64,000 bases of DNA from an uncultured Lachnospiraceae bacterium (GTDB lineage: Bacteria > Bacillota > Clostridia > Lachnospirales > Lachnospiraceae): the NCBI GenBank assembly GCA_944384025.1, contig CALWRS010000001.1:186001-250000 (forward strand), written 5' to 3'. The notes under the pieces are model-generated. The model had not been told where the DNA came from. It saw only the letters and a program-made list of their open reading frames with translations, and did no database searches. A program made the translations under genes and the position numbers. Position 1 is the stretch's first letter. Each line of letters starts with the position of its first letter. Shown piece by piece: positions 46,325-63,287 of this stretch.

Positions 46325-47212
46325 TTACGTCATCTTAATCCGCTTGCCCTGGTGCTGGTGGTACGCTTTATACTCCGACGGCGTGCATTCTTTTGCTGCC
46401 CGAAACACGCGGTTAAACGTGGAAATGGAGGAGAAGCCGGATTGCAGCGCAACGTCGGTAATGGACAAGGTCGGATTTAGAAGAAGCGTCTCCGCCGCCT
46501 TTACTCTGCGCTGGTTTAAGTACGCATAAAAGGACTGGTCGGTAAATTGCTTAAACAATCTGGAAAAATGGAACTTGCTAAAACCGGCAAGGCTCGCCAT
46601 TTTCTCCAGCGTGATGTTTTCCGTGTAGTTGTTGTTGATGTAATTGACGACCGTGTTCATCTTGTCAAAATACTCCATCTGCTTGTTGGTGCGCACGTCC
46701 GGAAACAGCAAGTCCTTCCGGGCGTGCAGCCGTCCAAGCTGTACAAAAAATTGAATTAGGTAGGAGTACATCATGGATTGGCGAAGCGGCTGCGTGCTAT
46801 CGTTCTCCTCCTCGATCATCTGATTTAAAAGCCGTACGGAAGCTTCGTGAATTTCGCTGTAATGGTTTGGCGAAATTAAAATTGGCTGCAAGGGCACGAC
46901 GGAAATCGTGGAAGCGTCCCGCATTACACTAATGGGCGTCGTATCAAACATAAGGATTAAGCGCAGTCCGTTGGGGCGCGAAATTAGCTGGTGCAGCTCT
47001 CCGGGCGGGATAAAGAAAATGTCCCGCTCCTGCAATTCGTAAGTTTGTCCGCTTACAACGACCGAGTAGCTGTTTGTAATCGGCATAATAATTTCTCCCG
47101 CAGTATGCCAATGCGTGTCGTAGGACTCCGACTCGTGGTTTAAATGCAGCAGGATGGAGCGATTCGCTTCAAAGGAAACTTTTTCATGAATTCCTGACAA
47201 TTCTCTTACCAT
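46325..47212 (-). CDS. AraC-family regulator of the glycan locus
   Basis: The 295-residue protein has an N-terminal cupin sensor (about 15-95, with HWHTAGEIIMPI and FFIPPGELHQL) and a C-terminal AraC double helix-turn-helix (about 190-290, including LEKMASLAGFSKFHFSRLFK and LQSGFSSISTFNRVFR). It is divergent from the transport/hydrolase operon and is its likely sugar-responsive regulator. Start 47212 follows AGGAGG at 47223-47228; the frame extends to 47311 without a better site. Confidence 0.87.
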   Translation of the reverse strand: MVRELSGIHEKVSFEANRSILLHLNHESESYDTHWHTAGEIIMPITNSYSVVVSGQTYELQERDIFFIPPGELHQLISRPNGLRLILMFDTTPISVMRDASTISVVPLQPILISPNHYSEIHEASVRLLNQMIEEENDSTQPLRQSMMYSYLIQFFVQLGRLHARKDLLFPDVRTNKQMEYFDKMNTVVNYINNNYTENITLEKMASLAGFSKFHFSRLFKQFTDQSFYAYLNQRRVKAAETLLLNPTLSITDVALQSGFSSISTFNRVFRAAKECTPSEYKAYHQHQGKRIKMT

Positions 47213-47617
47213 ATGGCTATGACCTCCTGATGATACAAATTCCTTCGTGCGGCCTCTTCTTACATGTCTTGCAATTATTGCTAGATTTTTCCCCTTGACA
47301 AAAGTGTGCAAAACAGTAGAAACTTAAAGAAAAAAATTGTGCAAATGCTTATGAAGAGGTAAATTAAGCGCTGGAAATTTGCCAAGTCTATTGAGCAATT
47401 TAGCGAAAAAAAACGGAAGGCGCGACCTCATTTTTTTGCATCTTGACCGACAATAGCAAGATTTGACTTAAATATAGCAAAAACTGATATGCAAATGCAA
47501 GGGGATTTTATTAAAATATAGAATAACTGGTTGTGACTTTGCTGAACATTTCATGAAATATGGATAAAAATTGAAGGCAAGTTGACAAGTCATGAGAGAG
47601 TAAGGAGAAGTGATGCA
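47213..47617. promoter_or_regulatory. Divergent control region of the glycan locus
   Basis: This 405-bp AT-rich gap must hold promoters for the AraC gene and the operon. The word GCAAATGC occurs at 47341-47348 and 47491-47498, and AATAGCAAGATTT-like words occur near 47271 (inverted) and 47453; these are possible AraC sites. TTGACA at 47295 and TTGACT at 47463 are candidate -35 elements, but no clean pair with a -10 was found. Confidence 0.4.
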
Positions 47618-50617
47618 ATGGGTAAGGTCAAGAGTATCTTGAAAAAGAAGTATGTCTACTGGCCGCTGATCATTATCGTCGTTGCGGCGGTGCTCTTCGT
47701 GTGGAGTTCGTTCTCCCGCGTAGAAAGCTATGCAGACAAGTACGCCGGATTTGATTTCTCGACGATAGAAGGCGAAGGTCGAGAGGACTCCTACACCGCT
47801 TATCTGCTCAGACACGGAGAGGCGGACGGCACAGCCGTATACCCTTCGGGAACGTATGAAGTTTCCCTGGCAGAAGGAGATGTAGAAGGAGAGAATTTCG
47901 CTTATATTTCTTACGGCGGAGAAGAGAAGGTGCTTGCGTCCTACGAGGACGGCTACGTAGAGTTTCAGGTGGATATAGACGAAGCCGGACTTTACAACAT
48001 TTACCTTACATACTACCCGGATCAGGAAGAGGAAACTTCCAGAGGTATTGAAATTGAGCGTGCGCTCTACATTAACGGAGAAATTCCGTTCTCCGGCGCA
48101 GACGCTTTAACTTTTAACCGGATCTTTACAAACGACGGAGAGTCTACGTTTGATAACCAGGGGAACGAAATTCGTCCCGGTCAGATTGAAGCTCCCCGCT
48201 GGGAAACCACCTACCTTTACGACGACCTTGGCTATATTACCGATCCGTATTGCTTCTACTTTGAAGCCGGAGAAAATACGATTCGTCTTGAATCCAGCCA
48301 GGAGACGCTTATCTTAAAGGAATTTGTCGTAGCAAAGAAGTTAGAAACGCCGAGCTACGAATCGTACATTCAGGGAGCGGACACGAGCCTGAGCGACCCG
48401 AATTTCCACTTGCAGATTCAGGGCGAAGAAGCGCAGTATCGTTCTTCTCAGTCGCTTTACGCAACGTACGACCGTTCTTCCGCATCTACAACGCCTTACA
48501 GCGTAACGACGCAGCGTTTGAACATGATTGGCGGAAACAACTGGAAAGTGCCCGGACAGTGGATTGAATGGGAAGTAGAAGTACCGGAATCTGGATACTA
48601 CGAGCTGACGCTTAAAGCAAGACAGAATTATAACCGCGGCTTTGTTTCCTGCCGTTCTTTGTACATAAACGGACAGATTCCTTTTGAAGAGGTTTCTGCG
48701 ATTAAGTTTGATTTCTCAAACGACTGGCAGTTGATGACGATTTCGGACGATAGTGGAAATCCGTACCTGTTCTACTTAGAAGAAGGCACGAACCGCATTC
48801 GTCTGGAAGTTACGCTTGGTGAAGTCGGCGACATCTTAAACCGCATGAACGACAGCGTATACCGTCTGAATCAGCTTTACCGCAAAATCCTTGTTGTAAC
48901 CGGTACCGAGCCGGATGAAAACCGCGACTACAACTTGGACAAAAAGTACCCGGACGTTATTGAAGGTATGGACGACGAGTACAAAGTGCTTTACAAAATT
49001 ATCGACGACCTGATTGCATACACCGGAGAAGCAGGAACGCAAGTTTCCGCTTCCTTGACGCTTGCAAATCAGCTGGAGCGTTTTGCAGACGACCCGGACA
49101 ACATTACGACAAGCTTGCAAAACTTCAAGGACAACGTCAGCGCGCTTGGTTCTTCCATTCTTACGCTGAGCCAGTCTAATCTGGATATCGACTACATTAT
49201 CGTATCCGGAACCGAGTACAAAGTGCCGGACGATTCGCCGTCTTGGTTTGACAACGTGCTCCACGAAGTAAAAGCATTTATCTCTACCTTCACGGTAGAT
49301 TATAACGCCATCGGAAACGTATACGGCGACGAAATGGAAACCATTACCGTTTGGATTTTCGCAGGACGTGACCAGTGTACAATTCTGAAGACCATGATCG
49401 ACGATACGTTCGTGGAAAAATACGGCATAGGCGTTAACGTAGACCTGATTACCGCCGACGTTTTGCTTCCTGCTACTGTTGCAGGAACCGGCCCGGATGT
49501 GGCGCTGAACGCCGCCAGCGGCGAGCCTGTCAACTACGCGCTTCGAGGCGCCGCTACCGATCTGACGCAGTTTAAAGGAAACGGTTCGGATATCCGCGGA
49601 TTTGACGAAGTAATTGCCGAATATAAAGATTCTTCGTACGTTCCGTACCAGTACGACGGCGGCGTTTATGCAATCCCTGAGACGCAGTACTACAACGTTA
49701 TGTTCTATCGTACGGATATCTTAGAAGAGCTTGGACTGGAAATTCCGCAGACCTGGGACGAATTGATTGCCATGCTGCCGACCATCCAGAAGTCCAACAT
49801 GAACATCGGCGTTCCTTCAACGGAACGTAAGATTAACAACGTTGCGAATCCGGACCTTTCAGGATTCTTTGCACAGTACTACCAGCACGGCGGCTCCTTG
49901 TATAACGAAGAAGGTTCCGCAACGCTTCTTGACAGCGAAGAGTCGGTTGCAGCGTTTGAAACCTTTACGATGTTCTTCACGCACTACAAATGTCCGACGG
50001 ATTACAACTTCGTAGACCGGTTCCGTACTGGTGAAATGCCGCTTGGCTTTGTAGATTACAACAACTACAACACGCTTGTTGTATCTGCACCGGAAATTCG
50101 TGGCCTGTGGGCTATGGCGCCGATTCCGGGAACGTATGTTACGGACGAAAACGGAAACTACGTTGACGCAGACGGCGACGGCGAATGGGATATCGACCGC
50201 AGCGTTTCCTGCTGGGGAACCTGCTCGATGCTTCTTGGTACGTCCGAGAAAAAAGAAGAAGCATGGACCTTCCTTCAGTGGTGGGCAGGCGCAGACGTAC
50301 AGGCCCGCTACGGACGCGAACTTGAAGCAGTTATGGGTGAATCCGCCCGCTACGCAACAGCAAACGTAGAAGCGTTTAATCAGCTTTCTTGGAGTTCGAC
50401 AGAGCGTGTTGTTTTGGAAGAGCAGTGGGATTGGGTAGTTGGTACGCCGGAAGTTCCGGGTGGATACTACACTTCCAGACATATCGTAAACGCAGTACGT
50501 AAAGTTATTAACGACAACGAAGATCCGCGTGAGACGCTGCTTGACTACAAGCGCGATATCGACGACGAGATTGCAAAGAAGAGAAAAGAATTTGGTTTGA
50601 CGGTAACCGCAAACTAA
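47618..50617 (+). CDS. Membrane-anchored solute-binding protein with two carbohydrate-binding-like modules
   Basis: The 999-residue protein has an N-terminal membrane anchor (about 11-31, after a Lys-rich start) and no lipobox. Two related beta-sandwich-like modules follow (about 40-255 and 265-400); each contains an LYING-IPF motif (ALYINGEIPF, SLYINGQIPF), suggesting internal duplication and CBM-like binding. A helical linker (about 405-560) leads to a family 1 extracellular solute-binding domain (about 573-999, VWIFAGRDQ..., GTGPDVALNAASGEPVNYA, ETQYYNVMFYRTDIL). It is roughly twice the usual length. It is the first gene of the operon and probably captures an oligosaccharide for the permeases that follow. 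Confidence 0.85.
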   Translation: MGKVKSILKKKYVYWPLIIIVVAAVLFVWSSFSRVESYADKYAGFDFSTIEGEGREDSYTAYLLRHGEADGTAVYPSGTYEVSLAEGDVEGENFAYISYGGEEKVLASYEDGYVEFQVDIDEAGLYNIYLTYYPDQEEETSRGIEIERALYINGEIPFSGADALTFNRIFTNDGESTFDNQGNEIRPGQIEAPRWETTYLYDDLGYITDPYCFYFEAGENTIRLESSQETLILKEFVVAKKLETPSYESYIQGADTSLSDPNFHLQIQGEEAQYRSSQSLYATYDRSSASTTPYSVTTQRLNMIGGNNWKVPGQWIEWEVEVPESGYYELTLKARQNYNRGFVSCRSLYINGQIPFEEVSAIKFDFSNDWQLMTISDDSGNPYLFYLEEGTNRIRLEVTLGEVGDILNRMNDSVYRLNQLYRKILVVTGTEPDENRDYNLDKKYPDVIEGMDDEYKVLYKIIDDLIAYTGEAGTQVSASLTLANQLERFADDPDNITTSLQNFKDNVSALGSSILTLSQSNLDIDYIIVSGTEYKVPDDSPSWFDNVLHEVKAFISTFTVDYNAIGNVYGDEMETITVWIFAGRDQCTILKTMIDDTFVEKYGIGVNVDLITADVLLPATVAGTGPDVALNAASGEPVNYALRGAATDLTQFKGNGSDIRGFDEVIAEYKDSSYVPYQYDGGVYAIPETQYYNVMFYRTDILEELGLEIPQTWDELIAMLPTIQKSNMNIGVPSTERKINNVANPDLSGFFAQYYQHGGSLYNEEGSATLLDSEESVAAFETFTMFFTHYKCPTDYNFVDRFRTGEMPLGFVDYNNYNTLVVSAPEIRGLWAMAPIPGTYVTDENGNYVDADGDGEWDIDRSVSCWGTCSMLLGTSEKKEEAWTFLQWWAGADVQARYGRELEAVMGESARYATANVEAFNQLSWSSTERVVLEEQWDWVVGTPEVPGGYYTSRHIVNAVRKVINDNEDPRETLLDYKRDIDDEIAKKRKEFGLTVTAN

Positions 50618-50636
50618 GAGAAGGGGGAATGACAAC

Positions 50637-51569
50637 ATGAGTTATGCAAACTGGAAAGTAGCGAAGAAACGTCAGGCCCATTACCTTCTCAAGGATATTC
50701 GGCAGCACAAAACCTGCTACGGCTTTCTGGCGCCATATGCGATTATCTTTATTACCTTTTACGTTATCCCGGTAGTTATCTCAATTTACTTGAGCTTTAC
50801 CTACTATAACGTTTTGCAGCCGCCCAGATTTATCGGTTTGACAAATTACATCAACCTGATTTTGGCGGACGACATCTTTTTGACGTCGGTCAAGAACACC
50901 TTTTTGATCGCGGCCATTACCGGACCGATCGGCTACATTATGGCCTTCCTGTTCGCTTGGCTGATTCACGAGCTGCCGCGAGGGATCCGCGCTTTTGCCG
51001 TACTTGTCTTCTACGCGCCGACCATTTCCGGTCAGGTATACGTTATGTGGGCACTCATCTTCTCCGGCGACGCGCTTGGATACGCAAATGCATGGCTAAC
51101 GGAGCTGGGCTTGATTGACGCACCGATTTTGTGGTTGACGAACCCGCAATACATGATGGGCGTTATCCTCTTAGTTACCCTTTGGATGTCCCTTGGTACC
51201 GGATTCCTCTCGTTTGTTGCCGGTCTGAATACGATTCCGACGGATCAATACGAGGCCGGTTACGTGGACGGCATTAAAAACCGCTGGCAGGAGCTTTGGT
51301 ACATTACGCTTCCGAACATGAAATCCATGTTGATGTTCGGTGCCGTTATGGCCATCACGCAGACCTTTAACACAGCGGAAGTAACAATGTCGCTTTGTGG
51401 TTTCCCGAGTACGGACTACGCGGCGCAGACGGTAGTAACACACCTGATTGACTACGGTTCGTATCGTTTTGAAATGGGTTACGCCTCTGCGATTGCAACG
51501 GTTCTCTTTCTGACTATGTTCTTGTGCAACAAGTTCATCCAGAAAGCGCTTGGCAGACTTGGAACTTGA
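50637..51569 (+). CDS. Sugar ABC transporter permease (MalF type), pair 1
   Basis: The 310-residue protein has six membrane segments and the EAA loop EAGYVDGIKNRWQELWYITLP, quoted in part, where the ATPase docks (about residues 200-220). It lies 19 bp after the binding protein with an AAGGGGG ribosome site. It should form a heterodimer with the next permease. Confidence 0.92.
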   Translation: MSYANWKVAKKRQAHYLLKDIRQHKTCYGFLAPYAIIFITFYVIPVVISIYLSFTYYNVLQPPRFIGLTNYINLILADDIFLTSVKNTFLIAAITGPIGYIMAFLFAWLIHELPRGIRAFAVLVFYAPTISGQVYVMWALIFSGDALGYANAWLTELGLIDAPILWLTNPQYMMGVILLVTLWMSLGTGFLSFVAGLNTIPTDQYEAGYVDGIKNRWQELWYITLPNMKSMLMFGAVMAITQTFNTAEVTMSLCGFPSTDYAAQTVVTHLIDYGSYRFEMGYASAIATVLFLTMFLCNKFIQKALGRLGT

Positions 51570-51584
51570 TGAGGGGGAAAGAAC

Positions 51585-52451
51585 ATGAAGAAAATTAAAG
51601 CTGGCAGACAGCCGAACCGTTCCGTTGGCGGCGATATCGGCGTAGGAATCTTCCTTGTTATCTTCGGATGCTTTTTTGCTTTCCCGCTCGTATTTGCCAT
51701 CAACAATGCTTTTAAGCCTCTCAACGAGCTTTTCGTGTTCCCGCCGAACTTGTTTGTAAAGAACCCGACGCTCAGCAACTTTAACGACTTGTTCCTTTTG
51801 ATGAACAAGTCCGGCGTTGTAACGTTTACGCGTTATCTGTTCAACTCGTTCTTTATTACGTTTGTCGGGACGGCAGGACATATTATTATCGCTTCCATGG
51901 CGGCATATGTCCTTTCCAAATACAGATTCCCGGGCGGGAAGCTGTTCTTTACCATGGTTACGGTAGCCTTGATGTTCTCCGGATACGTTTTGGCGATTCC
52001 GAACTACCTGATTATGGCAAAGCTGCACTGGGTAGATTCATATTTTTCCATTATTATACCGGCGTTTGCCCTTCCCATGGGTCTGTTCCTTATGAAGCAG
52101 TTCATGGAGTCCAGTATTCCAGACGTTTTGATTGAAGCTGCGAAGATCGACGGCGCGAAGGAAGGAACGATTTTCTTCCGCATTGTTATGCCGCTTGTAA
52201 AACCGGCAACCTTGACGCTGATGATCTTCTCCATCCAGAACCTCTGGAACAACGTGGCGACGACCTATATCTACTCGGAAGAAAAGAAAACCTTGCCGTT
52301 TGCACTTAAGACGGTGGCGGCCGGCGGTGTTGCCCGTACCGGTGTCAGTGCGGCGACAACGGTGTTTGTTATGATTGTTCCGCTCGTCAGCTTCCTGTTT
52401 GCACAGAGCAACATCGTAGAAACTATGGCGAGTTCAGGTATTAAAGAGTAG
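51585..52451 (+). CDS. Carbohydrate ABC transporter permease (MalG type), pair 1
   Basis: The 288-residue protein has six membrane segments and an EAA loop with IEAAKIDGAKEGTIFFRI near residues 183-200. It is the second half of importer 1, 15 bp after the first permease. No ATPase gene follows; the next gene is the NHL/TPR protein. Confidence 0.92.
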   Translation: MKKIKAGRQPNRSVGGDIGVGIFLVIFGCFFAFPLVFAINNAFKPLNELFVFPPNLFVKNPTLSNFNDLFLLMNKSGVVTFTRYLFNSFFITFVGTAGHIIIASMAAYVLSKYRFPGGKLFFTMVTVALMFSGYVLAIPNYLIMAKLHWVDSYFSIIIPAFALPMGLFLMKQFMESSIPDVLIEAAKIDGAKEGTIFFRIVMPLVKPATLTLMIFSIQNLWNNVATTYIYSEEKKTLPFALKTVAAGGVARTGVSAATTVFVMIVPLVSFLFAQSNIVETMASSGIKE

Positions 52452-52464
52452 GAGGGAAGATAAG

Positions 52465-54333
52465 ATGACAAAAAAACGAATCACAGTGCTCTTTCTTCTT
52501 ATGTGCCTGCTTCTTTCCACCGTTCACACAGCATTTGCGAGCGACTGGTACTCCTACACATATAACTTCTGGGGAGAAGAAGTGGAGTCTCCCGACGCAT
52601 ACTCAGTTACAAATGTGCTGTACGGAACGAACTGGGAAGAGGTCGGAGCTTTTAAAAATCCGGAAGGTATTTTCACGGTAGGCGACAGCGTATTTATTTG
52701 CGATACCGGAAACAACCGGATTGTAGAGCTCTTACGCAAAGACGGTACTTACGAATTTGTACGTGTCATTTATTCTGTACAAGTAGCGCAGGACCTTGCA
52801 GAGCAGTTAACAGTTGACGGCAACATTACGCTTACCTTCAACACTCCGACAGATATTTATGTAATGCCGATTACAGACGAAGAACGTTTGGAGGTATTCG
52901 GCGAATATACCGGCGAAATGTACGAAGTTCCCGTAACCGAGGAACCGGCAGAAGACGAAACCGGTGACGAGACTGGAGAAGAACCAGCAGAAGATGGAAC
53001 CGGTGACGAGACTGGAGAAGAACCGGCAGAAGACGAGACCGGAAGCTCCTCGGAGAGCGAAGACGCTGCCGAAGCAGAAGCGGCAGACGGCGAGACCGAA
53101 GACGGAGAAACAGCGGACGGTGAAACCGGTGACGGGGAAGCAGCGGACGGAGAAGCCGGTGACGGCGAGTCCGGCGAAACGGTTGTAGTTCCTTACCGGG
53201 AAAACATTATCGGACAGGAGTTGGATCTGGAATACGACTTCTACATTGCAGACTGCCAGAACAACCGAATTCTTCACTGCGATTATAACATGAACGTTAT
53301 CGGCGTTATCCAAAATCCGGAAGACGACACACTTGCCGACAACTACGAATTCCTCCCCTGCAAGCTTGTTGCAGACGCAGCGTACCGTGTTTATGTGCAG
53401 GCTACGGGTATTAACTCCGGCTTGATGGAGTTTGATAAGACCGGAACTTTCACCAGCTACGTAGGAGCGAACAAAGTACAGGTCAGCATCGTAGATAAAA
53501 TCTGGAGAAAGCTGCAAACGCAGGCGCAAAAGGACAGAACTGTTCAGTATGTGCCTACCGAATATAACAACTTAAGCCTTGACTCGAAAGGCTTCATCTA
53601 CGTAACGACGCATACGCTTGAAGACGACGACATCTGGGCAGGAACGGCGACTCCCGTTCGCAAGCTTAACTCTATGGGCTCGGACATTCTCGTTCGAAAC
53701 GGAAACGCTTATCCTTCCGGCGACCTTGTATGGGGTACGGCAGGAGGTATTTCCGGAGCATCCATGTTGATTGACGTTATCGCGTTTGCAAACGACACGT
53801 ACGCGTGTCTTGACCGTGCGCGGGGCCGCCTGTTTGTTTACGACTTCCAAGGCAATATGCTTTGCGCGTTCGGAAATTACGGCTCAGTAGCCGGCTGCTT
53901 TACGTTCCCGACCGGCATGGATAACCCGGATGAGGAGACGATCCTTGTTCTGGACCGCCAAGGCTCGGTAACTGAATTTTCTATGACCAACTACGGTCGG
54001 ATGATTAACGAAGCGCTTGCGGAGTACAAGATTGGTCATTACGACGAATCGGCGGAGATTTGGCAGGAAGTACTTAAGTACAACGGAAACAACGAACTTG
54101 CCTACGTCGGTATCGGCCGTGCGCTTTTACGAAACGGCCAGTACAAAGAGGCGATGGAGTACTTTGAAGTCGCAAGAGACGAAGTAAACTACTCCAAAGC
54201 ATTTAAGCATTACCGCGAGCAGGTAGTAGAGGAGTACATCGGAGTGGCGGTTGTTGCACTCGCTGTTCTGATTATTGTTCCGAAGCTGATTCGGGGAACG
54301 ATAAAACTGCGAAAGGAGATTCGAGAAGCATGA
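52465..54333 (+). CDS. Secreted, membrane-tethered NHL-repeat/TPR protein with acidic repeat region
   Basis: The 622-residue protein has a signal peptide (1-25), NHL-like beta-propeller blades (for example NPEGIFTVGDSVFICDTGNN near 53-72 and DFYIADCQNNRILHCD near 257), an acidic insertion of tandem 13-residue repeats EEPAEDETGDETG (about 159-245), TPR-like helices (about 515-580, KIGHYDESAEIWQEVL, GQYKEAMEYFEVA) and a C-terminal membrane segment (about 592-612) with a Lys/Arg-rich cytoplasmic tail. The bulk is outside the cell. Its role is unknown; a scaffold or glycan/peptidoglycan-binding function in the transport complex is inferred. It overlaps the YIP1 gene by 4 nt. Confidence 0.8.
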   Translation: MTKKRITVLFLLMCLLLSTVHTAFASDWYSYTYNFWGEEVESPDAYSVTNVLYGTNWEEVGAFKNPEGIFTVGDSVFICDTGNNRIVELLRKDGTYEFVRVIYSVQVAQDLAEQLTVDGNITLTFNTPTDIYVMPITDEERLEVFGEYTGEMYEVPVTEEPAEDETGDETGEEPAEDGTGDETGEEPAEDETGSSSESEDAAEAEAADGETEDGETADGETGDGEAADGEAGDGESGETVVVPYRENIIGQELDLEYDFYIADCQNNRILHCDYNMNVIGVIQNPEDDTLADNYEFLPCKLVADAAYRVYVQATGINSGLMEFDKTGTFTSYVGANKVQVSIVDKIWRKLQTQAQKDRTVQYVPTEYNNLSLDSKGFIYVTTHTLEDDDIWAGTATPVRKLNSMGSDILVRNGNAYPSGDLVWGTAGGISGASMLIDVIAFANDTYACLDRARGRLFVYDFQGNMLCAFGNYGSVAGCFTFPTGMDNPDEETILVLDRQGSVTEFSMTNYGRMINEALAEYKIGHYDESAEIWQEVLKYNGNNELAYVGIGRALLRNGQYKEAMEYFEVARDEVNYSKAFKHYREQVVEEYIGVAVVALAVLIIVPKLIRGTIKLRKEIREA

Positions 54334-55004: not shown

Positions 55005-55026
55005 CACAGGAGAAGGAGGGAAAAAG

Positions 55027-57585
55027 ATGAAACGTAAAATTATAATAACTTTATCCTGTGTATGCGTGATTGGGCTTCTGGTGTTTTTGGCCATTCACTT
55101 TGGGTTTGGAAAAACAGAAGAGCAGGAACCAATTAAACCGTACCGTTTTGATTCCGAATTAAGCACGGATATACAAACGATCAGCAACGGTTCGCTCACG
55201 TTGGAATTCGATCCGACGACAACGCACTTTACGCTGACGGACAGCTTTGGAAATCAGTGGACGTCGAATCCGACTGCTGACGACGCAAAGACTCGTGCCG
55301 AGCTTCAGGCGGCGGTTATTCTTTCCTACACGAACAACAAGGGCGTTGCCACACAGCTTGACAGCTACAAAAGCAGTGTGGAAAAGGGAAATTATTCCTA
55401 CGAGGTGCTTGCGGATTCCAATACGATTCGTGTAGATTACACCATCGGTCAGATTGAGAAAGTTTACTACATTCCTCTGGCGGTTCCTTACTCCCGCTAC
55501 GAAGAGCTCTTTAACGCAGTTTCTCCGGAAGGACAGAGCGAAATGCGAAGCGCATACCGCATTCTGAATTACGAAAAACTGCAAGGCAGGGATGAGTTGG
55601 CAGAATTGCTAAAGCTCTATCCGACACTCGAAACAGAAGACGTTGTTGTACTCCGAGACGGAACGCAGGAGTGGAAGAAAGAAGTTGTAGAAGGTTATCT
55701 GGCGGAAATCGGATATGACGCAGAGCAGTACGAAGCGGATCTGGCACATTTTGGCACAGAGACGACCGACGACGAACCGGCAATCAACCTTTCGGTTTAC
55801 TACACGCTTGACGGAGACGACTTCGTTGTAAAAGTGCCTTTTGACGAAATCGAGTACTACGACGAATACCCGATTACCGATTGCCGCGTACTTCCGTATA
55901 TGTGTTCCGCAGGAAATCAGGAAGAAGGCTTCTTGTTTGTGCCGGACGGCTCGGGCTCGTTAATTTACTTTAACAACCAAAAATCGAACCAGACGCAGTA
56001 CACGGCAAACATCTACGGATGGGACTACGGTATGGAGCGCGAGATGATCGTAAACGATCCGGAAGTTCGCTTCCCGGTTTACGGCATCAGCTACACGGAG
56101 TCTGACCGGTCGATGCTTTGCATTGTAGAAGAGGGCGAGAGCTACGGATACATCGAAGCGGACGTTGCAGGAAGAAGACATAATTACAACTACGTTACCG
56201 CTGGATTTACGATGGTACACGGACAGCTTGCAAACGTTTCCGGACGAAGCGACACCGGTGTATACCTCTTTGAAGAAGATCTTGCGCCGGGCGAGCAGAT
56301 TTCTATCCGCTACCGCGCCGTTGATTCTTCAAGCTATGTAGATATGGCGGTAGAGTACCGCGAATATCTCTTTGACAAGTATCCAACGCTTGCAGAGGGC
56401 GTTTCGGACCATCTTCCGATGGTTGTCGAATTAATCGGAGCGATTACAAAGACGCAGCAGGTGCTTGGTTTCCCGAAGGATAAGCCGTACGCTCTGACAA
56501 CCTACAAGGAAATGCAGCAAATCATTCAGGAATTGAACGATGCGGGACTTACGAACCTAGACATTATCCTTAACGGCTGGTTTAACGACGGCGTTGTTCA
56601 TGAGGTTGCCGACGACGTAGATTTGATTTCGGTTCTTGGAAGCAAGAAAGATTTTAAGGCATTGCTTTCCGCGATTGCAAAGCAGAATCAGAACGTTTAC
56701 CTGAAAGCAGACGTAACGTTTGTATACAAAAACAGTCTGTTTGATTCCTACAGCGTACGCTCGGATTCGACAAAATACATCAGCCGCGAAGTTGCGGAGA
56801 TGCAGGACATCAGCAATATTTTCTACTCCATTGATGAGTACAGCGATTACTACTATCTGGCAAAACCCAGATTTGCAATGGAGACGCTGGATGACTTTAT
56901 GAGCGAGATTCAGAAATACGGAGCAAACAATGTTGCTCTTACCTCCATTGGAAACGTCCTTGCGGCAGATTATAACCGCAAGGATACGGTTTCCAGAGAA
57001 AACGCAAAGAAAATGCATATCGACAAGCTGGGCAGTATGCGCGACGCAGGCAACGGCATCGTAATTTACGAAGGCAATTCTTACCTGATTCCTTACGCGG
57101 ATTTGGTAGTTAACATGCCGCTTAAGTCGCAGGGCAGCAACATCGTAGATCAGGAAATTCCGTTCTTCTCGATTGTGCTGCACGGCTACGTAACTTATAC
57201 GGGCGATGCGCTAAATATTACCGGCGACTTTATTACCAACCTGCTTAAGACGGTAGAATCCGGTGCCGGCCTCTATTGTGTTTTAATGGATGCGCCAAGC
57301 AACGCCCTTCAGGACACGGATTCAACGGAGTTTTACGGAGCGAACTTTGACAGTTGGAAGGAAGATATCATTTCCTACTACAAGCGCTTTGAAAGTGATT
57401 TCGCGGGACTTTACACGCAGACGATTGCCGACCATCAAATCGTTGCGGAAAACGTTACGATGACACAATACGAGGACGGCACGCAAGTCTACGTAAATTA
57501 CCGTACCGCAGACTATACGCTTGAGGACGGAACAGTGATTCCGGCACAAGATTGGGTTGTGGTTAGCGCGAAAGGAGGGAACTGA
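55027..57585 (+). CDS. Membrane-anchored DUF5696 protein (putative glycan-active)
   Basis: The 852-residue protein has an N-terminal membrane segment (about 5-24) followed by a large extracellular part. A beta-rich first half contains GFLFVPDGSGSLIYFNN (about 300-317), and the second half (about 470-780) alternates strands and helices like a TIM barrel (for example GLTNLDIILNGWFNDGV). I recognise the DUF5696 family from this combination; it has been suggested to be glycosidase-like but no activity is established. It follows YIP1 and precedes the second permease pair by 2 bp. Confidence 0.75.
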   Translation: MKRKIIITLSCVCVIGLLVFLAIHFGFGKTEEQEPIKPYRFDSELSTDIQTISNGSLTLEFDPTTTHFTLTDSFGNQWTSNPTADDAKTRAELQAAVILSYTNNKGVATQLDSYKSSVEKGNYSYEVLADSNTIRVDYTIGQIEKVYYIPLAVPYSRYEELFNAVSPEGQSEMRSAYRILNYEKLQGRDELAELLKLYPTLETEDVVVLRDGTQEWKKEVVEGYLAEIGYDAEQYEADLAHFGTETTDDEPAINLSVYYTLDGDDFVVKVPFDEIEYYDEYPITDCRVLPYMCSAGNQEEGFLFVPDGSGSLIYFNNQKSNQTQYTANIYGWDYGMEREMIVNDPEVRFPVYGISYTESDRSMLCIVEEGESYGYIEADVAGRRHNYNYVTAGFTMVHGQLANVSGRSDTGVYLFEEDLAPGEQISIRYRAVDSSSYVDMAVEYREYLFDKYPTLAEGVSDHLPMVVELIGAITKTQQVLGFPKDKPYALTTYKEMQQIIQELNDAGLTNLDIILNGWFNDGVVHEVADDVDLISVLGSKKDFKALLSAIAKQNQNVYLKADVTFVYKNSLFDSYSVRSDSTKYISREVAEMQDISNIFYSIDEYSDYYYLAKPRFAMETLDDFMSEIQKYGANNVALTSIGNVLAADYNRKDTVSRENAKKMHIDKLGSMRDAGNGIVIYEGNSYLIPYADLVVNMPLKSQGSNIVDQEIPFFSIVLHGYVTYTGDALNITGDFITNLLKTVESGAGLYCVLMDAPSNALQDTDSTEFYGANFDSWKEDIISYYKRFESDFAGLYTQTIADHQIVAENVTMTQYEDGTQVYVNYRTADYTLEDGTVIPAQDWVVVSAKGGN

Positions 57586-57587
57586 TT

Positions 57588-58514
57588 ATGGCAGAGCAAA
57601 AAATCAGAAAGAGAAAGAAAAAACAGAAAAGTCTGGCGCGCGGCAACGCCATTGCCGGCTATCTGTTTATCAGCCCGTTAATTATCGGCTTCCTTCTTTT
57701 CCTTGCTTACCCGCTGATTCAATCGTTTTACATGTCCTTTTGTACCGTATCTCCGGTTGCCGGACATGGATTTGAGTTTGTATGGTCGGGACTTGCGCAT
57801 TACAGACATATCTTTACCGTAGATCCGGATTATACGAGGCTGCTCTTGGAAGAGCTTCAGAAGATGGCGCTTTACGTACCGTCGATTCTGGTATTCAGCT
57901 TCTTCATGTCGCTGCTTTTGAATCAGGAGTTTAAGGGAAGAACGTTTGTAAGAGCCGTATACTTCCTTCCGGTTATTCTCTCCTCCGGCGTTATGGTTGG
58001 TCTTGAGACGAACAACGCGCTTCTTTCCGGAGTGCAGGATTTGATTCAGGAAGATACGAACGGAACCAGTATTACGGCTACGCTTGAGAGCATATTGTTA
58101 CAGGGAGAGACCGGAAACAAGTTTTTTGAAACCATTATCCAGATTGTAGACGAAGTTTACAACATAGCGATTGCTTCCGGTATTCAGATTATTATCTTCC
58201 TCTCCGGATTGCAGACCATTTCGCCGAGTATGTACGAGGCGGCAACGATTGAGGGCTGTACCGGATGGGAGAGCTTTTGGAAGATTACGTTCCCTATGAT
58301 CAGTTCGCTGATACTTGTAAACGTTATTTACACGATTGTCGATTTCTTTACGAAGTCCGACAGTGAGTTTATGGATATGATTAACGAGACGCTCCTGCAA
58401 AACTTTAACTACGGGCGTGTGTCGGCGATGTCATGGGTATACTTTGCAATTATTATCGTGATTCTCGGCATAGTTTCACTGATTATTTCTAAGAGGGTAT
58501 ACTATTATGACTAA
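57588..58514 (+). CDS. Sugar ABC transporter permease, pair 2 (first)
   Basis: The 308-residue protein has a Lys/Arg-rich N-terminus, six membrane segments and the EAA loop YEAATIEGCTGWESFWKI (about 222-239). A long extracytoplasmic loop (about 140-180) is unusual. It starts 2 bp after DUF5696 and overlaps the next permease by 8 nt. Confidence 0.9.
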   Translation: MAEQKIRKRKKKQKSLARGNAIAGYLFISPLIIGFLLFLAYPLIQSFYMSFCTVSPVAGHGFEFVWSGLAHYRHIFTVDPDYTRLLLEELQKMALYVPSILVFSFFMSLLLNQEFKGRTFVRAVYFLPVILSSGVMVGLETNNALLSGVQDLIQEDTNGTSITATLESILLQGETGNKFFETIIQIVDEVYNIAIASGIQIIIFLSGLQTISPSMYEAATIEGCTGWESFWKITFPMISSLILVNVIYTIVDFFTKSDSEFMDMINETLLQNFNYGRVSAMSWVYFAIIIVILGIVSLIISKRVYYYD

Positions 58515-59544
58515 GACGAAATACATTTCAAAATCCATGACAAGAAAAGAGCGCTGGAATCTTTTCTGGGAAAGAAACCGCAAGTCAGAGGGATATTTGC
58601 TGAAGAAAAAACTTGGCAGATTCGTTTACTGTGTATGCCGCGCATTTCTGATTTTTGGTTTGTGTTTCCTGATTCTCCAGCCCCTAGCAAGCAAGCTTTC
58701 GATTAGCCTTATGGAAGAGCAGGACCTCTACGACCGAACGGTCATCAACATTCCGAGACATTTCTCGGTTTCTGCTTACCAGATTGCATGGGATATGATG
58801 GATGGTATTAAGACGTTTTGGACGTCCTTTTACGTATCCTTCCTTGTAGCGGCCGCGCAGGTTGTATCCTGTACGCTTGTTGGATACGGCTTTGCCAGAT
58901 TTAAGTTTCCGCTTAAAAACTTCTGGTTTGCCTGCGTAATCCTGTTAATTATCGTTCCGCCGCAGACGATTATTACACCGCTGTACCTGTATTTCCAGGA
59001 CTTCGATATCCTTGGAATTATCGGACTGTTTAACAACGGAAGCGGGCTGAACCTTTTGGGAAGTTTGACGCCGTATTTGATGATGTGTCTTGGCTGCGCC
59101 GGTTTTAAAGGCGGCTTGTACATTTACATGCTTCGGCAGCACTTCCGGAACGAGCCAAAGGAGCTGGAGGAAGCTGCTTACGTAGACGGCTGCGGACGGC
59201 TGCGGACGTTTTTGCAGATTCTGCTTCCGGGCGCTACCCCAATTATTACGTCCTGTTTCCTGTTCTCCTTTGTATGGCAGTGGACGGACGCATATTATTC
59301 CCGCGTTTTCTTTGCAAGAGCATACGGCTGGACGTTAGTAACCAACCGGCTTACATCGCTTGTTGACCGCTTGGATGCGGAATACAAAGCCATTTATGGT
59401 CAAAGCTTCCAAATTGCAACAGCGTTTGGTCAGCAAATCCTTTCCACGGCTACGCTGATGACGCTCATTCCTTTGATCCTGATTTACGTAGTAGCGCAGA
59501 AAAACTTCGTAGAAAGTCTTTCGCAAACCGGTATTAAGGGATAA
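58507..59544 (+). CDS. Carbohydrate ABC transporter permease, pair 2 (second)
   Basis: The 345-residue protein has an extended basic N-terminus (about 40 residues), six membrane segments and the EAA loop LEEAAYVDGCGRLRTFLQIL (about 219-238). It completes importer 2. A UUCG hairpin in the 62-bp gap to the next gene may protect or process the transcript. Confidence 0.9.
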   Translation: MTKTKYISKSMTRKERWNLFWERNRKSEGYLLKKKLGRFVYCVCRAFLIFGLCFLILQPLASKLSISLMEEQDLYDRTVINIPRHFSVSAYQIAWDMMDGIKTFWTSFYVSFLVAAAQVVSCTLVGYGFARFKFPLKNFWFACVILLIIVPPQTIITPLYLYFQDFDILGIIGLFNNGSGLNLLGSLTPYLMMCLGCAGFKGGLYIYMLRQHFRNEPKELEEAAYVDGCGRLRTFLQILLPGATPIITSCFLFSFVWQWTDAYYSRVFFARAYGWTLVTNRLTSLVDRLDAEYKAIYGQSFQIATAFGQQILSTATLMTLIPLILIYVVAQKNFVESLSQTGIKG

Positions 59545-59558
59545 AGCTAAAGAACGAA

Positions 59559-59582
59559 TTAAAAGAGTTTCGACTCTTTTAA
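59559..59582 (+). other. Intercistronic UUCG hairpin before the binding-protein gene
   Basis: A perfect 10-bp stem TTAAAAGAGT/ACTCTTTTAA with a TTCG tetraloop and no U-run directly after it. Such hairpins before solute-binding-protein genes often stabilise the downstream mRNA. Confidence 0.55.
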
Positions 59583-59605
59583 GAATATTTTAAGGAGGTA
59601 ACTCA

Positions 59606-61015
59606 ATGAAAAATGTAAAGAAACTCGCACTGTTTCTCGTTGTTCTTGTGTTTGCGTTTTCCGTTGTAGCATGTGGAGATAAGCCGGCAGACAGCGACAC
59701 TACAACGCCGTCGCCGACAACAGGCGGACAGTCCAGCGCAACGCCAACGGATACAGAACCTGCGAGAGACCTGGAAGGTCGTAGAATTGTCATCGCTGAC
59801 TGGTGGTCGACTGAAACTTACAGAGACCCTACCACGACCTATCTGGAAGATTACTGGAACTATCAGGACGAAATGATGGAAAAGTACAACTACACGATCG
59901 TTCGTGAAGCTGTATCTGACTGGGGCAACATGGGACAGGATGCAATGCTTTCCATCACAAACGGAAGCCCGGTTGGTGATATCATCGTTCTGGACTCCAG
60001 CAGCGTAGCATCCCTGCTTGACAAGGGATTGTTCGCAGACGTATCCGTATTAACGGAGTTTGACTTCACAGACGACAAGTGGAACAAAGCCGTTTTGGAA
60101 GTTATGACCGTAGGTAACGCTATCTATGGTTTCGCAGGCTCCACAGAGCCGAGAACCGGCGTATTCTTCAACATGGACATGTTTGAAACGCTCGGTGTTG
60201 ACCCGCAGCTTCCTTTCGACCTTCAGGCAAGTGGCGAATGGAACTGGGCAAACTTTGAAGATCTTTGCAGCAAGCTTCTTGCAGGCGGAGATACGAACAG
60301 CGACGGTGTTGTAGAAGTTTATCCGATCGCTTCCTTCTCGACCGACTTCTTCCCGGCATGTCTTGTAGCAAACAACACGGATGTTATCGTAAATAACGAC
60401 GGTGTTCTTGCAACCAACTACAACGATCCTGCCGTTTTGGAAGCTCTGAACTGGGGCTACTCCCTCTACGAAGCAGGCTACGTAATGCCGCAGCCGGCAG
60501 ATTCCGAGTGGGATTGGTTCAAGGCAGCATTCCAGGAGCAGAAGACTTGCATGCGTGTTTGTGAAGAGTACGAAGCAGGCACAATCGTTGGCTATGACTT
60601 CAAGTCCGGCTTTGTATGCTTCCCTTACGGTCCGTCCAGCGATGGCGAGCTGATCTCGATCGTTCGTGAGAACATCCTGATTATCCCGTCCTGCTACGAC
60701 AATAATACAATCGCTGACATTGCTTTTGCATACGATATCTTCACGGATGACGTTCCGGGATACGAAGATGACGACGCATCTTGGAAGGGCAGCTACGAAG
60801 CAATGTTCAAGGATCAGAGATCTGTTAACGAAACGCTTGATTTGATGATCAACGATCTGGAACAGATAATGAGACCTACGATTCTTCTTCCGGATTACAA
60901 CAATGAGTGGATCTGGGACATCGATGCAGGCGTCGCAAGCCCGGCAGAGCAGCTGGAAGCTTTTGGAACTCAGTGGGATACGATGGTTGAAGAATTCAAC
61001 AACAAGACGCGCTAA
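59606..61015 (+). CDS. Lipoprotein solute-binding protein of importer 2
   Basis: The 469-residue protein has a lipoprotein signal with lipid-attachment Cys23 (SVVAC), a Thr/Ser/Pro-rich linker (about 28-52) and a family 1 solute-binding fold. It has an AAGGAGG site. It is the expected sugar receptor for the second permease pair. It ends at a hairpin followed by four T that could reduce transcription into the GH3 gene. Confidence 0.88.
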   Translation: MKNVKKLALFLVVLVFAFSVVACGDKPADSDTTTPSPTTGGQSSATPTDTEPARDLEGRRIVIADWWSTETYRDPTTTYLEDYWNYQDEMMEKYNYTIVREAVSDWGNMGQDAMLSITNGSPVGDIIVLDSSSVASLLDKGLFADVSVLTEFDFTDDKWNKAVLEVMTVGNAIYGFAGSTEPRTGVFFNMDMFETLGVDPQLPFDLQASGEWNWANFEDLCSKLLAGGDTNSDGVVEVYPIASFSTDFFPACLVANNTDVIVNNDGVLATNYNDPAVLEALNWGYSLYEAGYVMPQPADSEWDWFKAAFQEQKTCMRVCEEYEAGTIVGYDFKSGFVCFPYGPSSDGELISIVRENILIIPSCYDNNTIADIAFAYDIFTDDVPGYEDDDASWKGSYEAMFKDQRSVNETLDLMINDLEQIMRPTILLPDYNNEWIWDIDAGVASPAEQLEAFGTQWDTMVEEFNNKTR

Positions 61016-61043
61016 TTACATAAGTATTGCGTAAGTATCTGTA

Positions 61044-61072
61044 GGGGTATTTCCAACGGAAATACCCCTTTT
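61044..61072 (+). terminator. Terminator after the binding protein
   Basis: An 11-bp stem GGGGTATTTCC/GGAAATACCCC with a 3-nt loop followed by TTTT. With a short T-run it may only partly terminate. Confidence 0.75.
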
Positions 61073-61110
61073 ATCAAAAGCAGTTTACATTTATCAAAGC
61101 GGAGGGAAGC

Positions 61111-63240
61111 ATGAGCATTTCGGCAAAATACATTGCGGATTACAAGAAAAGAGCAGCAAAGCTTGTATCCGAGATGACCTTAGAGGAGAAGGTATTTCAG
61201 ACATTATATAACGCGCCGGCAATCGACCGGTTGGGAATTAAATCCTACAATTACTGGAACGAAGCACTGCACGGCGTAGCAAGAGCCGGAGTGGCGACGG
61301 TCTTTCCGCAGGCGATTGGTCTGGCTGCTGCATTTGACGAGGATTTGATGGAGGAAGTGGCGGATACCATTTCCACGGAAGGAAGAGCAAAATTTAACAT
61401 GCAGCAAAAGTACGGTGATCACGACATTTACAAAGGATTGACCTTCTGGTCTCCGAATGTAAATATCTTTCGGGATCCGCGTTGGGGTCGCGGACACGAA
61501 ACTTACGGAGAAGACCCGTACTTAAGCGGCAGGCTGGGCGTTCGTTTTATCCGCGGATTGCAGGGAACGGACGAACGATATATGAAGGTTGCGGCATGTG
61601 CAAAGCACTTTGCAGTGCACAGCGGTCCGGAGGATTTGCGGCACAGCTTTAACGCGGTAGTCAGCAAGCAGGATCTTTGGGAGACGTATTTGCCAGCCTT
61701 TGACGCCTGCGTTCACGAAGGTGAGGTAGAAGCGGTTATGGGCGCGTACAACCGAACCAACGACGAACCATGCTGCGGCAGTCAGCTGCTGCTCGTAGAT
61801 ATCCTGCGTAAAATGTGGGGCTTTGACGGCCACGTCACGTCAGACTGCTGGGCAATTAAAGATTTTCATGAGTTCCACATGGTAACGAAAAACCAAGTGG
61901 AGTCGGTTGCACTCGCAATGAATAAAGGCTGCGATCTAAACTGCGGCAATATGTACGTTCATCTCTTGCAGGCCGTTCGGGAAGGTCTTGTAGAGGAGAG
62001 CACGCTGGATACGGCGGTAACTCGTCTTTTGACAACCCGGATGAAACTGGGACTGTTTGATCCGGCGGAGGACGTGCCGTACAACAAAATCGGCTACGAC
62101 CAGTGCGACGGAAAGGCACAAAAAGAGCTGAACTTAAAAGCAGCAAAGAAGACCATTTGCCTGCTGAAAAACGAAAACAATACGCTCCCGCTTGATTTGA
62201 AGAAAATTCAAACGATCGGCGTTGTCGGTCCGAACGCGGACAGCCGGAAGGCGCTTGTTGGAAACTACGAAGGAACGGCTTCCGAGTACGTTACTGTACT
62301 GGAAGGCATTCGCGAATACGTTGGAGACGACAAACGGATATATTTCTCCGAAGGCTGCCACTTGTTTAAAGACCGCGTACAGGGGCTGGGACAGCCGTAT
62401 GACCGTACAGCGGAGGCAAGAGCCATTGCCGACATGAGCGACGTTGTGATTGCTGTATTTGGTCTGGATCCGGGCCTTGAGGGTGAAGAAGGAGACGAGG
62501 GCAACGAATTTGCCTCCGGCGATAAGCCGAATCTGAACCTTCCGGGAATTCAGGAAGAAGTCATTAAAGCGCTTTACGAAAGCGGAAAGCCGGTAATTCT
62601 TGTGCTGCTTAGCGGAAGCGCGCTGGCAGTAAAGTGGGAGCAGGAGCATCTGCCCGCCATTTTGCAAGGCTGGTATCCGGGAGCACAGGGAGGACGCGCA
62701 ATCGCACAAATTCTCTTTGGCGACGCATCTCCGGAAGGAAAACTTCCCGTTACGTTTTACGAGACGAGCGAAGAGCTTCCGGCATTTACGGACTACGCGA
62801 TGAAAGGCCGGACATACCGGTACATGGAAAGACCGGCGCTTTATCCGTTTGGTTACGGACTTAGTTATACGAGCTTTGCTTTAACGGACGCATCCGTTGA
62901 GGGTACGATTGGCGAAGACACGAAAGTTACATGCCGCGTCACGGTAGAAAACACCGGTGCAATGACCGGCGCACAGACCGTGCAGGTATACGTGAAATCG
63001 CCAAGAGAGGGAGCGCCGAACGCACAGCTTAAGGGGTTAAAGAAAGTAACGCTCTCGCCGGGAGAAAAGAAAAACGTGGAAATCGTACTTGATTACCGAT
63101 CCTTTGCCGTATATAATGAGGAGGGTAAGAGAGTTCTCGCACCGGGAACCTACGAAGTTTATGTAGGCACATCGCAGCCGGACGAACGAAGCGCTGCGTT
63201 GCTTGGAGAAAGACCGGTAAGATTTTGCCTGGATGTATAA
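61111..63240 (+). CDS. Cytoplasmic GH3 glycosidase (beta-xylosidase/beta-glucosidase type)
   Basis: The 709-residue protein has the GH3 N-terminal barrel with NYWNEALHGVARAG, typical of the xylan beta-xylosidase branch, the nucleophile motif VTSDCWAI with Asp245, the GH3 C-terminal alpha/beta domain and a fibronectin III-like end (about 600-700). No signal peptide is present, so it cleaves oligosaccharides inside the cell after import. It is the final gene of the locus and suggests a beta-linked xylo- or gluco-oligosaccharide substrate. Confidence 0.92.
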   Translation: MSISAKYIADYKKRAAKLVSEMTLEEKVFQTLYNAPAIDRLGIKSYNYWNEALHGVARAGVATVFPQAIGLAAAFDEDLMEEVADTISTEGRAKFNMQQKYGDHDIYKGLTFWSPNVNIFRDPRWGRGHETYGEDPYLSGRLGVRFIRGLQGTDERYMKVAACAKHFAVHSGPEDLRHSFNAVVSKQDLWETYLPAFDACVHEGEVEAVMGAYNRTNDEPCCGSQLLLVDILRKMWGFDGHVTSDCWAIKDFHEFHMVTKNQVESVALAMNKGCDLNCGNMYVHLLQAVREGLVEESTLDTAVTRLLTTRMKLGLFDPAEDVPYNKIGYDQCDGKAQKELNLKAAKKTICLLKNENNTLPLDLKKIQTIGVVGPNADSRKALVGNYEGTASEYVTVLEGIREYVGDDKRIYFSEGCHLFKDRVQGLGQPYDRTAEARAIADMSDVVIAVFGLDPGLEGEEGDEGNEFASGDKPNLNLPGIQEEVIKALYESGKPVILVLLSGSALAVKWEQEHLPAILQGWYPGAQGGRAIAQILFGDASPEGKLPVTFYETSEELPAFTDYAMKGRTYRYMERPALYPFGYGLSYTSFALTDASVEGTIGEDTKVTCRVTVENTGAMTGAQTVQVYVKSPREGAPNAQLKGLKKVTLSPGEKKNVEIVLDYRSFAVYNEEGKRVLAPGTYEVYVGTSQPDERSAALLGERPVRFCLDV

Positions 63241-63249
63241 GAAAGGAAA

Positions 63250-63287
63250 AAGGTGTGAAGGAGCTTCCTTCGCACCTTTTATTTTTT
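63250..63287 (+). terminator. Terminator after the GH3 gene
   Basis: A 13-bp stem (arms 63250-63262 and 63266-63278, one G-U) with a 3-nt loop, followed by TTATTTTTT, 9 bp after the GH3 stop and only 3 bp before the likely lepB start. Confidence 0.85.

What the first reader, a model, noticed from the sequence alone, without database searches (positions are those of the whole stretch)
46325..63240. Compact two-importer glycan locus with three uncharacterised membrane partners
Seen: an AraC regulator divergent from a collinear operon of binding protein, two permeases, NHL/TPR protein, YIP1, DUF5696, two more permeases, second binding protein and GH3 enzyme, mostly with gaps under 25 bp or overlaps. 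Known: single importers normally need one binding protein, two permeases and an ATPase. Inference: the accessory trio between the two halves may form a surface complex that presents or trims a beta-linked glycan and hands it to two importers. This may be a distinct Gram-positive analogue of polysaccharide utilisation loci.
Basis: partly seen in the sequence, partly recalled or inferred. Interest (0 to 1): 0.85.

Follow-up and report, generated by a model that had tools for sequence, protein, structure and literature searches.

The report
Conserved double sugar-importer cassette
Gut bacteria carry a fixed block of nine neighbouring genes that looks like a plant-fibre uptake machine: two sugar importers joined to three membrane proteins that appear unstudied, one of which has the shape of a sugar-cutting enzyme that seems to have lost a key cutting residue.

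Summary
The locus is real and at the stated coordinates. The nine-gene block (CBM-like/binding-protein fusion, permease, permease, NHL/TPR, YIP1, DUF5696, permease, permease, binding protein) is collinear in 57 of 63 uncut loci, seven of them Treponema. In 99 genomes (own plus 98 relatives), strong matches to NHL/TPR, YIP1 and the CBM half fall in the same 31. NHL/TPR and YIP1 are one fused protein in 21 more distant loci. DUF5696 is a membrane-anchored relative of GH129/GH101 glycosidases. The window's copy has Ser at the catalytic Asp column, and at most 17 of 97 proteins could hold an acidic pair, so it more likely binds glycan than trims it. Flanking enzymes point to xylan (41 of 82 loci), mannan (12 of 82, including the genome's second copy) and, in expanded lineages, pectin; 32 of 82 show neither xylan nor mannan type. 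The window's GH3 is nearest to beta-xylosidases. More distant loci vary: in half-cassettes the trio stays with the second importer only. Verdict: a new, widespread variant of ABC-based polysaccharide utilisation loci, not confined to Gram-positives. Complex formation, substrate and transport are inferred.

The parts
46325..47311 (-). AraC-family regulator (AraC_binding + HTH_18), divergent
47582..50617 (+). Membrane-anchored fusion: N-terminal TM, CBM-like beta-rich half (CBM35-like by weak matches), helical bundle, solute-binding domain (start more likely ATG 47618)
   Evidence: SBP_bac_1 2.5e-21; CBM_35 only 14.8 bits, cut-off 28; profile to 5x7g 1.2e-6; SBP half: 5ci5, 5ysf
50637..51569 (+). 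ABC permease A (UgpA/MalF-like)
51585..52451 (+). ABC permease B (UgpE/MalG-like)
52465..54333 (+). Signal-like N-terminus, NHL-type beta-propeller, TPR, C-terminal TM
   Evidence: fused to YIP1 in divergent lineages
54330..55004 (+). YIP1-family integral membrane protein
   Evidence: (Yip1 1.3e-12)
55027..57585 (+). DUF5696: N-terminal TM + GH129/GH101-like ectodomain; catalytic Asp column is Ser641 (numbering of the translation of 55024-57582)
57588..58514 (+). ABC permease C (paralogue of A)
58507..59544 (+). ABC permease D (paralogue of B)
59606..61015 (+). Lipoprotein-like solute-binding protein
   Evidence: no PDB sequence match at E<=0.001
61111..63240 (+). GH3 exo-glycosidase without a hydrophobic N-terminus, nearest PDB beta-xylosidase 7vc6
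63248..63280 (+). Terminator-like hairpin after GH3

Best explanation
A dedicated plant-cell-wall oligosaccharide uptake cassette. Shown: nine collinear genes conserved as a unit in the window's type; a membrane-anchored CBM-like/SBP fusion; a propeller/TPR protein and a YIP1 membrane protein that can be one polypeptide; a GH129-fold protein with a TM segment and an eroded catalytic pair; two permease heteropairs; variable enzymes at the edges. Inferred: the fusion and DUF5696 bind long hemicellulose chains at the outer face of the cytoplasmic membrane; the NHL/TPR-YIP1 pair scaffolds DUF5696 onto the second permease pair; both importers are powered by a shared MalK/MsmX-type ATPase; the imported oligosaccharides are cut in the cytosol, here by GH3 (most likely xylo-oligosaccharides).
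For: Order exact in 57 of 63 uncut loci. Strong NHL/TPR, YIP1 and CBM-half matches are in the same 31 of 99 genomes; 43 of 44 YIP1 genes lie beside NHL/TPR, 43 of 44 beside DUF5696, and 43 of 47 strong DUF5696 matches beside YIP1. NHL::YIP1 fusions in 8 loci and 13. Tight spacing: NHL to YIP1 median -4, DUF5696 to permease median 0. DUF5696 fold: 5opq E 1.6e-34, GH129 ~1e-26. D+E in either register in 6 of 97, D + any acid in 17 of 97; window Ser641. GH10 at 15 and GH67 at 14 of 82 loci, most without a hydrophobic N-terminus (GH10 11 of 15, GH67 14 of 14; crude test), which suggests import of long chains. Own second copy beside GH26-CBM35 and GH130. One OB_MalK protein, outside the window.
Against: No expression, binding or interaction data. 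32 of 82 loci showed no assigned xylan or mannan enzyme within reach. The window's GH3 could equally be a beta-glucosidase (both names are in the hit list). Treponema has an outer membrane (recalled), so the complex cannot everywhere be on the cell surface. More distant loci vary: 8 of 20 lack the fusion and permeases A/B beside the trio, one has the fusion after permeases C/D (L155), and in three an SBP stands before the fusion and none labelled follows the permeases (L136, L137, L152); 37 of 58 trio copies in six multi-copy genomes have no fusion match within 8 kb upstream, contig ends not excluded. 54 of 97 DUF5696 keep the catalytic Asp. YIP1 and DUF5696 have the lowest distance correlation among the nine genes (0.47). 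The CBM assignment is weak; no CBM is among the 50 fold matches shown.
Confidence: 0.55

Rival explanations
1. DUF5696 is an active extracytoplasmic glycosidase with a shifted or different catalytic pair, trimming side chains before uptake.
For: GH129/DagB fold; 54 of 97 keep the Asp; other columns are acidic in most rows (649 in 86 of 97, 709 in 91, 745 in 94); the window keeps Glu683 one column from the acid/base column.
Against: D+E in 6 of 97 even allowing a one-column shift; the window has Ser at the Asp column. A relative without NHL/YIP1 beside it (L131) shows both residues in the expected columns, so the alignment can find them.
Confidence: 0.2
2. The cassette holds two independent importers for two different products; the trio is a sensor or assembly factor, and conservation reflects co-regulation, not a complex.
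For: Two full permease heteropairs (A~C, B~D) and two SBPs without a significant BLAST match to each other; half-cassettes exist.
Against: Order and near-zero spacing between DUF5696 and permease C, and the NHL::YIP1 fusion, favour physical contact.
Confidence: 0.2
3. The trio serves envelope or glycan housekeeping and only hitchhikes in a sugar operon.
For: YIP1, NHL and TPR domains are not specific to sugar uptake (recalled).
Against: All 31 of 99 genomes with cassette-type YIP1 also have the CBM half and NHL/TPR, and flanking enzymes are repeatedly polysaccharide degrading.
Confidence: 0.05

Closest known systems
Gram-positive polysaccharide utilisation loci (gpPULs; PMC5320581)
   Same: Regulator + ABC transporter + glycoside hydrolase in one locus in Lachnospiraceae
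   Different: Two importers and an NHL/TPR-YIP1-DUF5696 trio of fixed order; also in Treponema; the trio is not named in the 12 passages seen
GH129 / GH129-like glycosidases (NagBb 5wzn; DagB 5opq/8rzk) and GH101
   Same: Fold of the whole ectodomain (beta-sandwich, TIM barrel, C-terminal domain in DagB); strong fold and profile match
   Different: TM segment, catalytic pair eroded, beside sugar permeases in the cassette loci read
CUT1 carbohydrate ABC importers with a shared MsmX-type ATPase (recalled)
   Same: SBP + UgpA/MalF- and UgpE/MalG-like permeases, no ATPase in the operon
   Different: Doubled; one SBP is TM-anchored and fused to a CBM-like half
SusC/SusD loci of Bacteroidota (recalled)
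   Same: Repeated core with swapped enzymes; 8-18 YIP1 matches per genome in five expanded genomes
   Different: ABC importers at the cytoplasmic membrane instead of an outer-membrane porin

Membership tests
gpPUL (definition in PMC5320581) | carbohydrate transport system | tested here: met
gpPUL (definition in PMC5320581) | transcriptional regulator | tested here: met
   AraC
gpPUL (definition in PMC5320581) | polysaccharide-degrading enzyme | tested here: inconclusive
   only a GH3 in the window operon; other loci hold GH10/GH26
GH129 glycosidase | GH129/GH101-like fold | tested here: met
GH129 glycosidase | catalytic Asp (NagBb D435) | tested here: not met
   Ser641 in the window; Asp in 54 of 97 proteins, window included
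GH129 glycosidase | catalytic Glu (NagBb E478, recalled) | tested here: inconclusive
   Tyr682 in the aligned column, Glu683 beside it
Pfam DUF5696 (PF18952) | score above curated cut-off | tested here: met
   607.8 against 25.6 bits
CUT1 ABC importer | SBP plus two permeases | tested here: met
   two sets
CUT1 ABC importer | ATPase available | tested here: inconclusive
   none in the operon; one OB_MalK match (376-aa frame) in the genome; its ATP-binding domain and pairing untested
SusC/SusD PUL | SusC and SusD homologues | not tested
   no gene of the locus matched such a family in the Pfam scans; the genome was not searched for them

The most novel reading that the evidence does not exclude
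A previously undescribed class of ABC importer holocomplex: a CUT1 importer with a dedicated extracytoplasmic receptor made from a dead glycosidase (DUF5696), held by a propeller/TPR-YIP1 scaffold, the ABC counterpart of SusCD, duplicated and re-specified by swapping enzymes for xylan, mannan and pectin in gut Clostridia and spirochaetes.
Probability: 0.35. Interest if true: 0.82.

Novelty: new variant of a known kind. Interest (0 to 1): 0.64.

Why it matters
How Gram-positive gut bacteria hold and import long hemicellulose chains without SusCD is an open question. A conserved block of three membrane proteins for which my searches found no study, tied to importers in 31 of 99 genomes and amplified to about 17 copies in one 3.0 Mb assembly, gives concrete genes to delete, purify and image. 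It also gives the orphan family DUF5696 a fold and a likely role (glycan receptor derived from a glycosidase).

Tried and rejected
Tried: viral contigs for DUF5696, two stretches matched, none confirmed. PDB search with the single DUF5696 sequence, only E 0.35-0.67; a profile was needed. SBP2 against the PDB, no match. Promoter scan uninformative: 19 found, 19.3 expected. Distance-matrix correlation between cassette genes (0.47-0.82) is confounded by shared phylogeny and is not used as support; there YIP1 and DUF5696 correlate least (0.47). Considered and rejected: trio scattered; operon break inside the locus (no gap over 95 bp); strict Gram-positive system (Treponema); DUF5696 as a novel fold. 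Literature: DUF5696 (0 papers), YIP1/NHL/sugar permease, two of three terms (0), GH129 and anhydrogalactosidase (6 listed), NagBb/GH129/nucleophile (1 listed), Yip1+xylan+ABC (1, on a fungus), gpPUL/xylan/SBP (6 listed, abstract starts only), Treponema/termite/xylan (3 listed; passages of two seen, none shown mentions the trio, and 'nhl' has no occurrence in PMC6298952), Yip1 domain+Lachnospiraceae (0), NHL+xylan+SBP (0), a broad complex query (0). The library is open-licence PMC only, so absence there is weak.

Rows set aside: 25 of 82 loci failed the exact-order test; 19 are cut by a contig end (one of them, L097, also has a split fusion ORF) and 6 are internal (L032 extra gene, L052 no YIP1 found, L072 and L083 permease B missing, L102 permease C missing and no SBP labelled, L104 permease C split). 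The 80 loci are the best of 420 relatives, so they lean towards the window's type. Catalytic counts use 97 DUF5696 rows, window included, of the 100 in A4; L131, L133 and L134 are left out of the counts, and L042 and L043 never entered A4 because of a length filter. For NHL/TPR, genomes with only weak matches were dropped (47 of 99 at E<=0.001, 31 of 99 below 1e-20). For DUF5696, 42 of 99 genomes match at E<=0.001 (39 over the cut-off); one search used only the 47 strongest matches, in 32 genomes. The 58 trio copies leave out two weak YIP1 matches (G180:C250, G199:C41), and its list of 30 CBM fusions leaves out the second fragment at G180:C60 and the weak matches (E above 1e-6). G180 is in 310 contigs with 5% contamination.
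Full report
OBSERVATION. Intergenic gaps along the + strand are 19, 15, 13, -4, 22, 2, -8, 61 and 95 bp. A 15-pair terminator-like hairpin follows GH3 at 63248-63280; the next gene is a signal peptidase I. The first 'binding protein' is larger than described: a TM segment, a beta-rich half, a helical bundle and a solute-binding domain. The beta-rich half is CBM35-like only by weak matches: Pfam CBM_35 14.8 bits against a cut-off of 28, a profile match to 5x7g at E 1.2e-6 and to 2w47 at 0.0098 (that these stretches are CBM35 modules is recalled). The NHL/TPR protein has an N-terminal signal-like segment and a C-terminal TM; DUF5696 has one N-terminal TM; YIP1 has four TM-like segments (hydropathy only).

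CONSERVATION. A scan of the GTDB genome contigs with DUF5696 found 420 relatives; the best 80 were kept. Among these 80 plus the window and the genome's second copy, the nine-gene order on one strand is exact in 57 of 82; 19 of the other 25 are cut by contig ends, so 57 of 63 uncut loci are exact. 16 of the 80 records are Treponema MAGs and 7 of the 57 exact loci are among them; the rest are titled Lachnospiraceae, Oscillospiraceae or other Clostridia/Eubacteriales groups, apart from one 'uncultured bacterium'. An AraC-labelled gene on the opposite strand occurs in 26 of the 57, so the regulator is not fixed. Searches not conditioned on DUF5696 gave, in the same 99 genomes (own plus 98 relatives, 74 genera), 31 for YIP1, 31 for the CBM half and 31 for strong NHL/TPR matches, the same 31 in each case; strong DUF5696 matches (47 in all) are in those 31 plus G051. 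Ten further genomes have only weak DUF5696 matches; the two of these read, L133 and L134, look like GH129 enzymes (L133 tested, L134 by its matching catalytic motifs). 43 of 44 YIP1 genes lie beside NHL/TPR and 43 of 44 beside DUF5696; one exception is at a contig start (G077:C59), the other (G098:C8) has no DUF5696 match near it. Among 20 loci read from relatives, 14 hold fusion, permease, permease, NHL/TPR, YIP1 (separate or fused), DUF5696, permease, permease in order; a labelled SBP follows directly in 6 of these 14.

FUSIONS, HALF-CASSETTES, EXPANSION. NHL/TPR and YIP1 are one protein in 8 of the 20 loci (659-717 aa) and in 13 of the 20 phylum-wide loci (700-835 aa), and in none of the 82 loci of the window's type. 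In a sample of 199 genomes of the phylum, 16 exceed the DUF5696 cut-off. Several carry many copies: 18, 10, 10, 10, 8 and 4 YIP1 matches in G180, G138, G160, G233, G263 and G199, one of them weak in G180 and one in G199. Of the 20 phylum-wide loci read, 11 have the fusion upstream of the trio, 8 have none there (half-cassettes: NHL::YIP1, DUF5696 and then, in 7 of the 8, two permeases; an SBP follows in 5; L148 is cut after DUF5696), and one (L155) has the fusion after permeases C/D. In the six multi-copy genomes 21 of 58 trio copies have a fusion match within 8 kb upstream on the same contig; contig ends were not excluded. So the trio belongs with the second importer, and the CBM-SBP importer is an add-on present in the cassettes of the window's type.

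DUF5696. A 12-sequence profile matches DagB (5opq E 7.5e-10; 8rzk 3.9e-10) and the GH129 enzyme NagBb (5wzn E 3.4e-7). The AlphaFold2 model (pLDDT 80.5, pTM 0.77; residues 568-589 and 596-610 below 50) finds DagB first (E 1.6e-34, probability 1.00, TM 0.67 by target and 0.53 by query, rmsd 7.3), then GH129 and GH101. A true NagBb homologue (L133, E 7.1e-271 to 5wzn) itself exceeds the DUF5696 cut-off (85.6 against 25.6 bits), and a global hhalign of 98 rows (97 plus L131) against L133/L134 gives probability 99.4. NagBb D435 and E478 were placed by counting along the alignment; that D435 is one of two catalytic residues is stated in PMC5698469 (section 7 read); that the other is E478 is recalled. 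At the D435 column 54 of 97 DUF5696 have Asp; the window has Ser641. At the E478 column 6 of 97 have Glu; the window has Tyr682 with Glu683 next to it. Allowing a one-column shift, D+E occurs in 6 of 97 and D plus any acid in 17 of 97. L131, a 560-aa relative beside permeases but without NHL/YIP1 in the stretch read, has both residues in the expected columns, a positive control for the alignment. Non-catalytic glycan binding is therefore the likelier role, not proven.

SUBSTRATE. Pfam on cluster representatives of flanking ORFs gives GH43 (16 loci), GH10 (15), GH67 (14), GH5 (9), GH130 (5) and GH26 (3), with clusters and names; few members per cluster were scanned. GH3 homologues are at 33 loci. 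By locus: xylan-type (GH10/GH67/GH43/GH3) 41 of 82, mannan-type (GH26/GH130/GH5) 12 of 82, both 3, none 32. By a crude hydropathy test on mechanically called ORFs, hydrophobic N-termini are absent from GH67 (0 of 14) and GH3 (0 of 33) and rare in GH10 (4 of 15), which suggests that long chains are imported. The genome's second copy (L032) is flanked by GH26-CBM35, GH130 and a GH31 C-terminal part. In expanded lineages the neighbours include GH106, GH28, pectate lyase, GH42, GH31 and an apiosidase-like domain (10 proteins chosen by size). The window's GH3 is nearest to xylan 1,4-beta-xylosidase 7vc6 (E 1.9e-105), so xylo-oligosaccharides are the best guess. The SBP half of the fusion is nearest by sequence to Lin1841 (5ysb, E 9.1e-13) and by fold to 5ci5 and the beta-1,2-glucooligosaccharide binding protein 5ysf, which does not fix the sugar.

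ENERGISATION. No ATPase lies in the operon. One protein with an OB_MalK domain was found in the genome, at G000:C10:17446. Permeases A/C and B/D are paralogous pairs, so both importers are complete heteropairs that would need an ATPase from elsewhere (inference, by analogy with MsmX, recalled).

COMPARISON AND NOVELTY. [quoted passage not shown] The window meets two of the three; GH3 alone is inconclusive for the first. The doubled importer with a fixed membrane trio was not found in print in the searches listed, which cover open-licence PMC papers only. I file it as a new variant of a known kind.

LIMITS. Everything is sequence- and model-based. Most loci are MAG contigs. ORFs were called mechanically. 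Flank classes rest on cluster representatives. Complex formation, substrate, transport and loss of activity are untested.

Noticed in passing
G000:C2:97000-116900 (L032): Second cassette copy in the same genome, flanked by GH26-CBM35, GH130, a GH31 C-terminal part and DUF624: a mannan-type counterpart of the window's locus.
   Followed up: yes
L133:9398-11281: A true NagBb-type GH129 homologue exceeds the cut-off of the Pfam DUF5696 model and scores higher there (85.6 bits) than on the GH129 model (33.2), so PF18952 and PF11308 overlap.
   Followed up: partly
alignments (L133 to 5wzn and 5opq): Through L133, NagBb Glu478 lines up with DagB Glu517, although PMC5698469 states that only Asp435 is conserved between the two.
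   Followed up: no
L131:8976-10655: A 560-aa DUF5696 relative with both GH129 catalytic residues, beside two permeases and an SBP but no YIP1 or NHL in the stretch read: a possible ancestral active form.
   Followed up: partly
G138, G160, G180, G233, G263: Genomes of 2.2-3.0 Mb with 8-18 YIP1 cassette matches each, resembling SusCD-like expansion.
   Followed up: partly
L155 (G277:C29): Here the CBM-SBP fusion follows permeases C/D and no permease A/B pair is beside the trio, as if it served the second importer.
   Followed up: no
L149:15571-18660, L154:348-3245: Large HEAT-repeat proteins beside the cassette in two genomes.
   Followed up: no
window 63294-63917: Signal peptidase I just after the operon; its cluster is downstream of the cassette in 9 of the 82 loci, window included, possibly plain synteny.
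   Followed up: no
window 23946-24197 (-) and 961-1014 (-): Rfam matches: a T-box leader and an SpF59 (ldcC RNA) sRNA.
   Followed up: no
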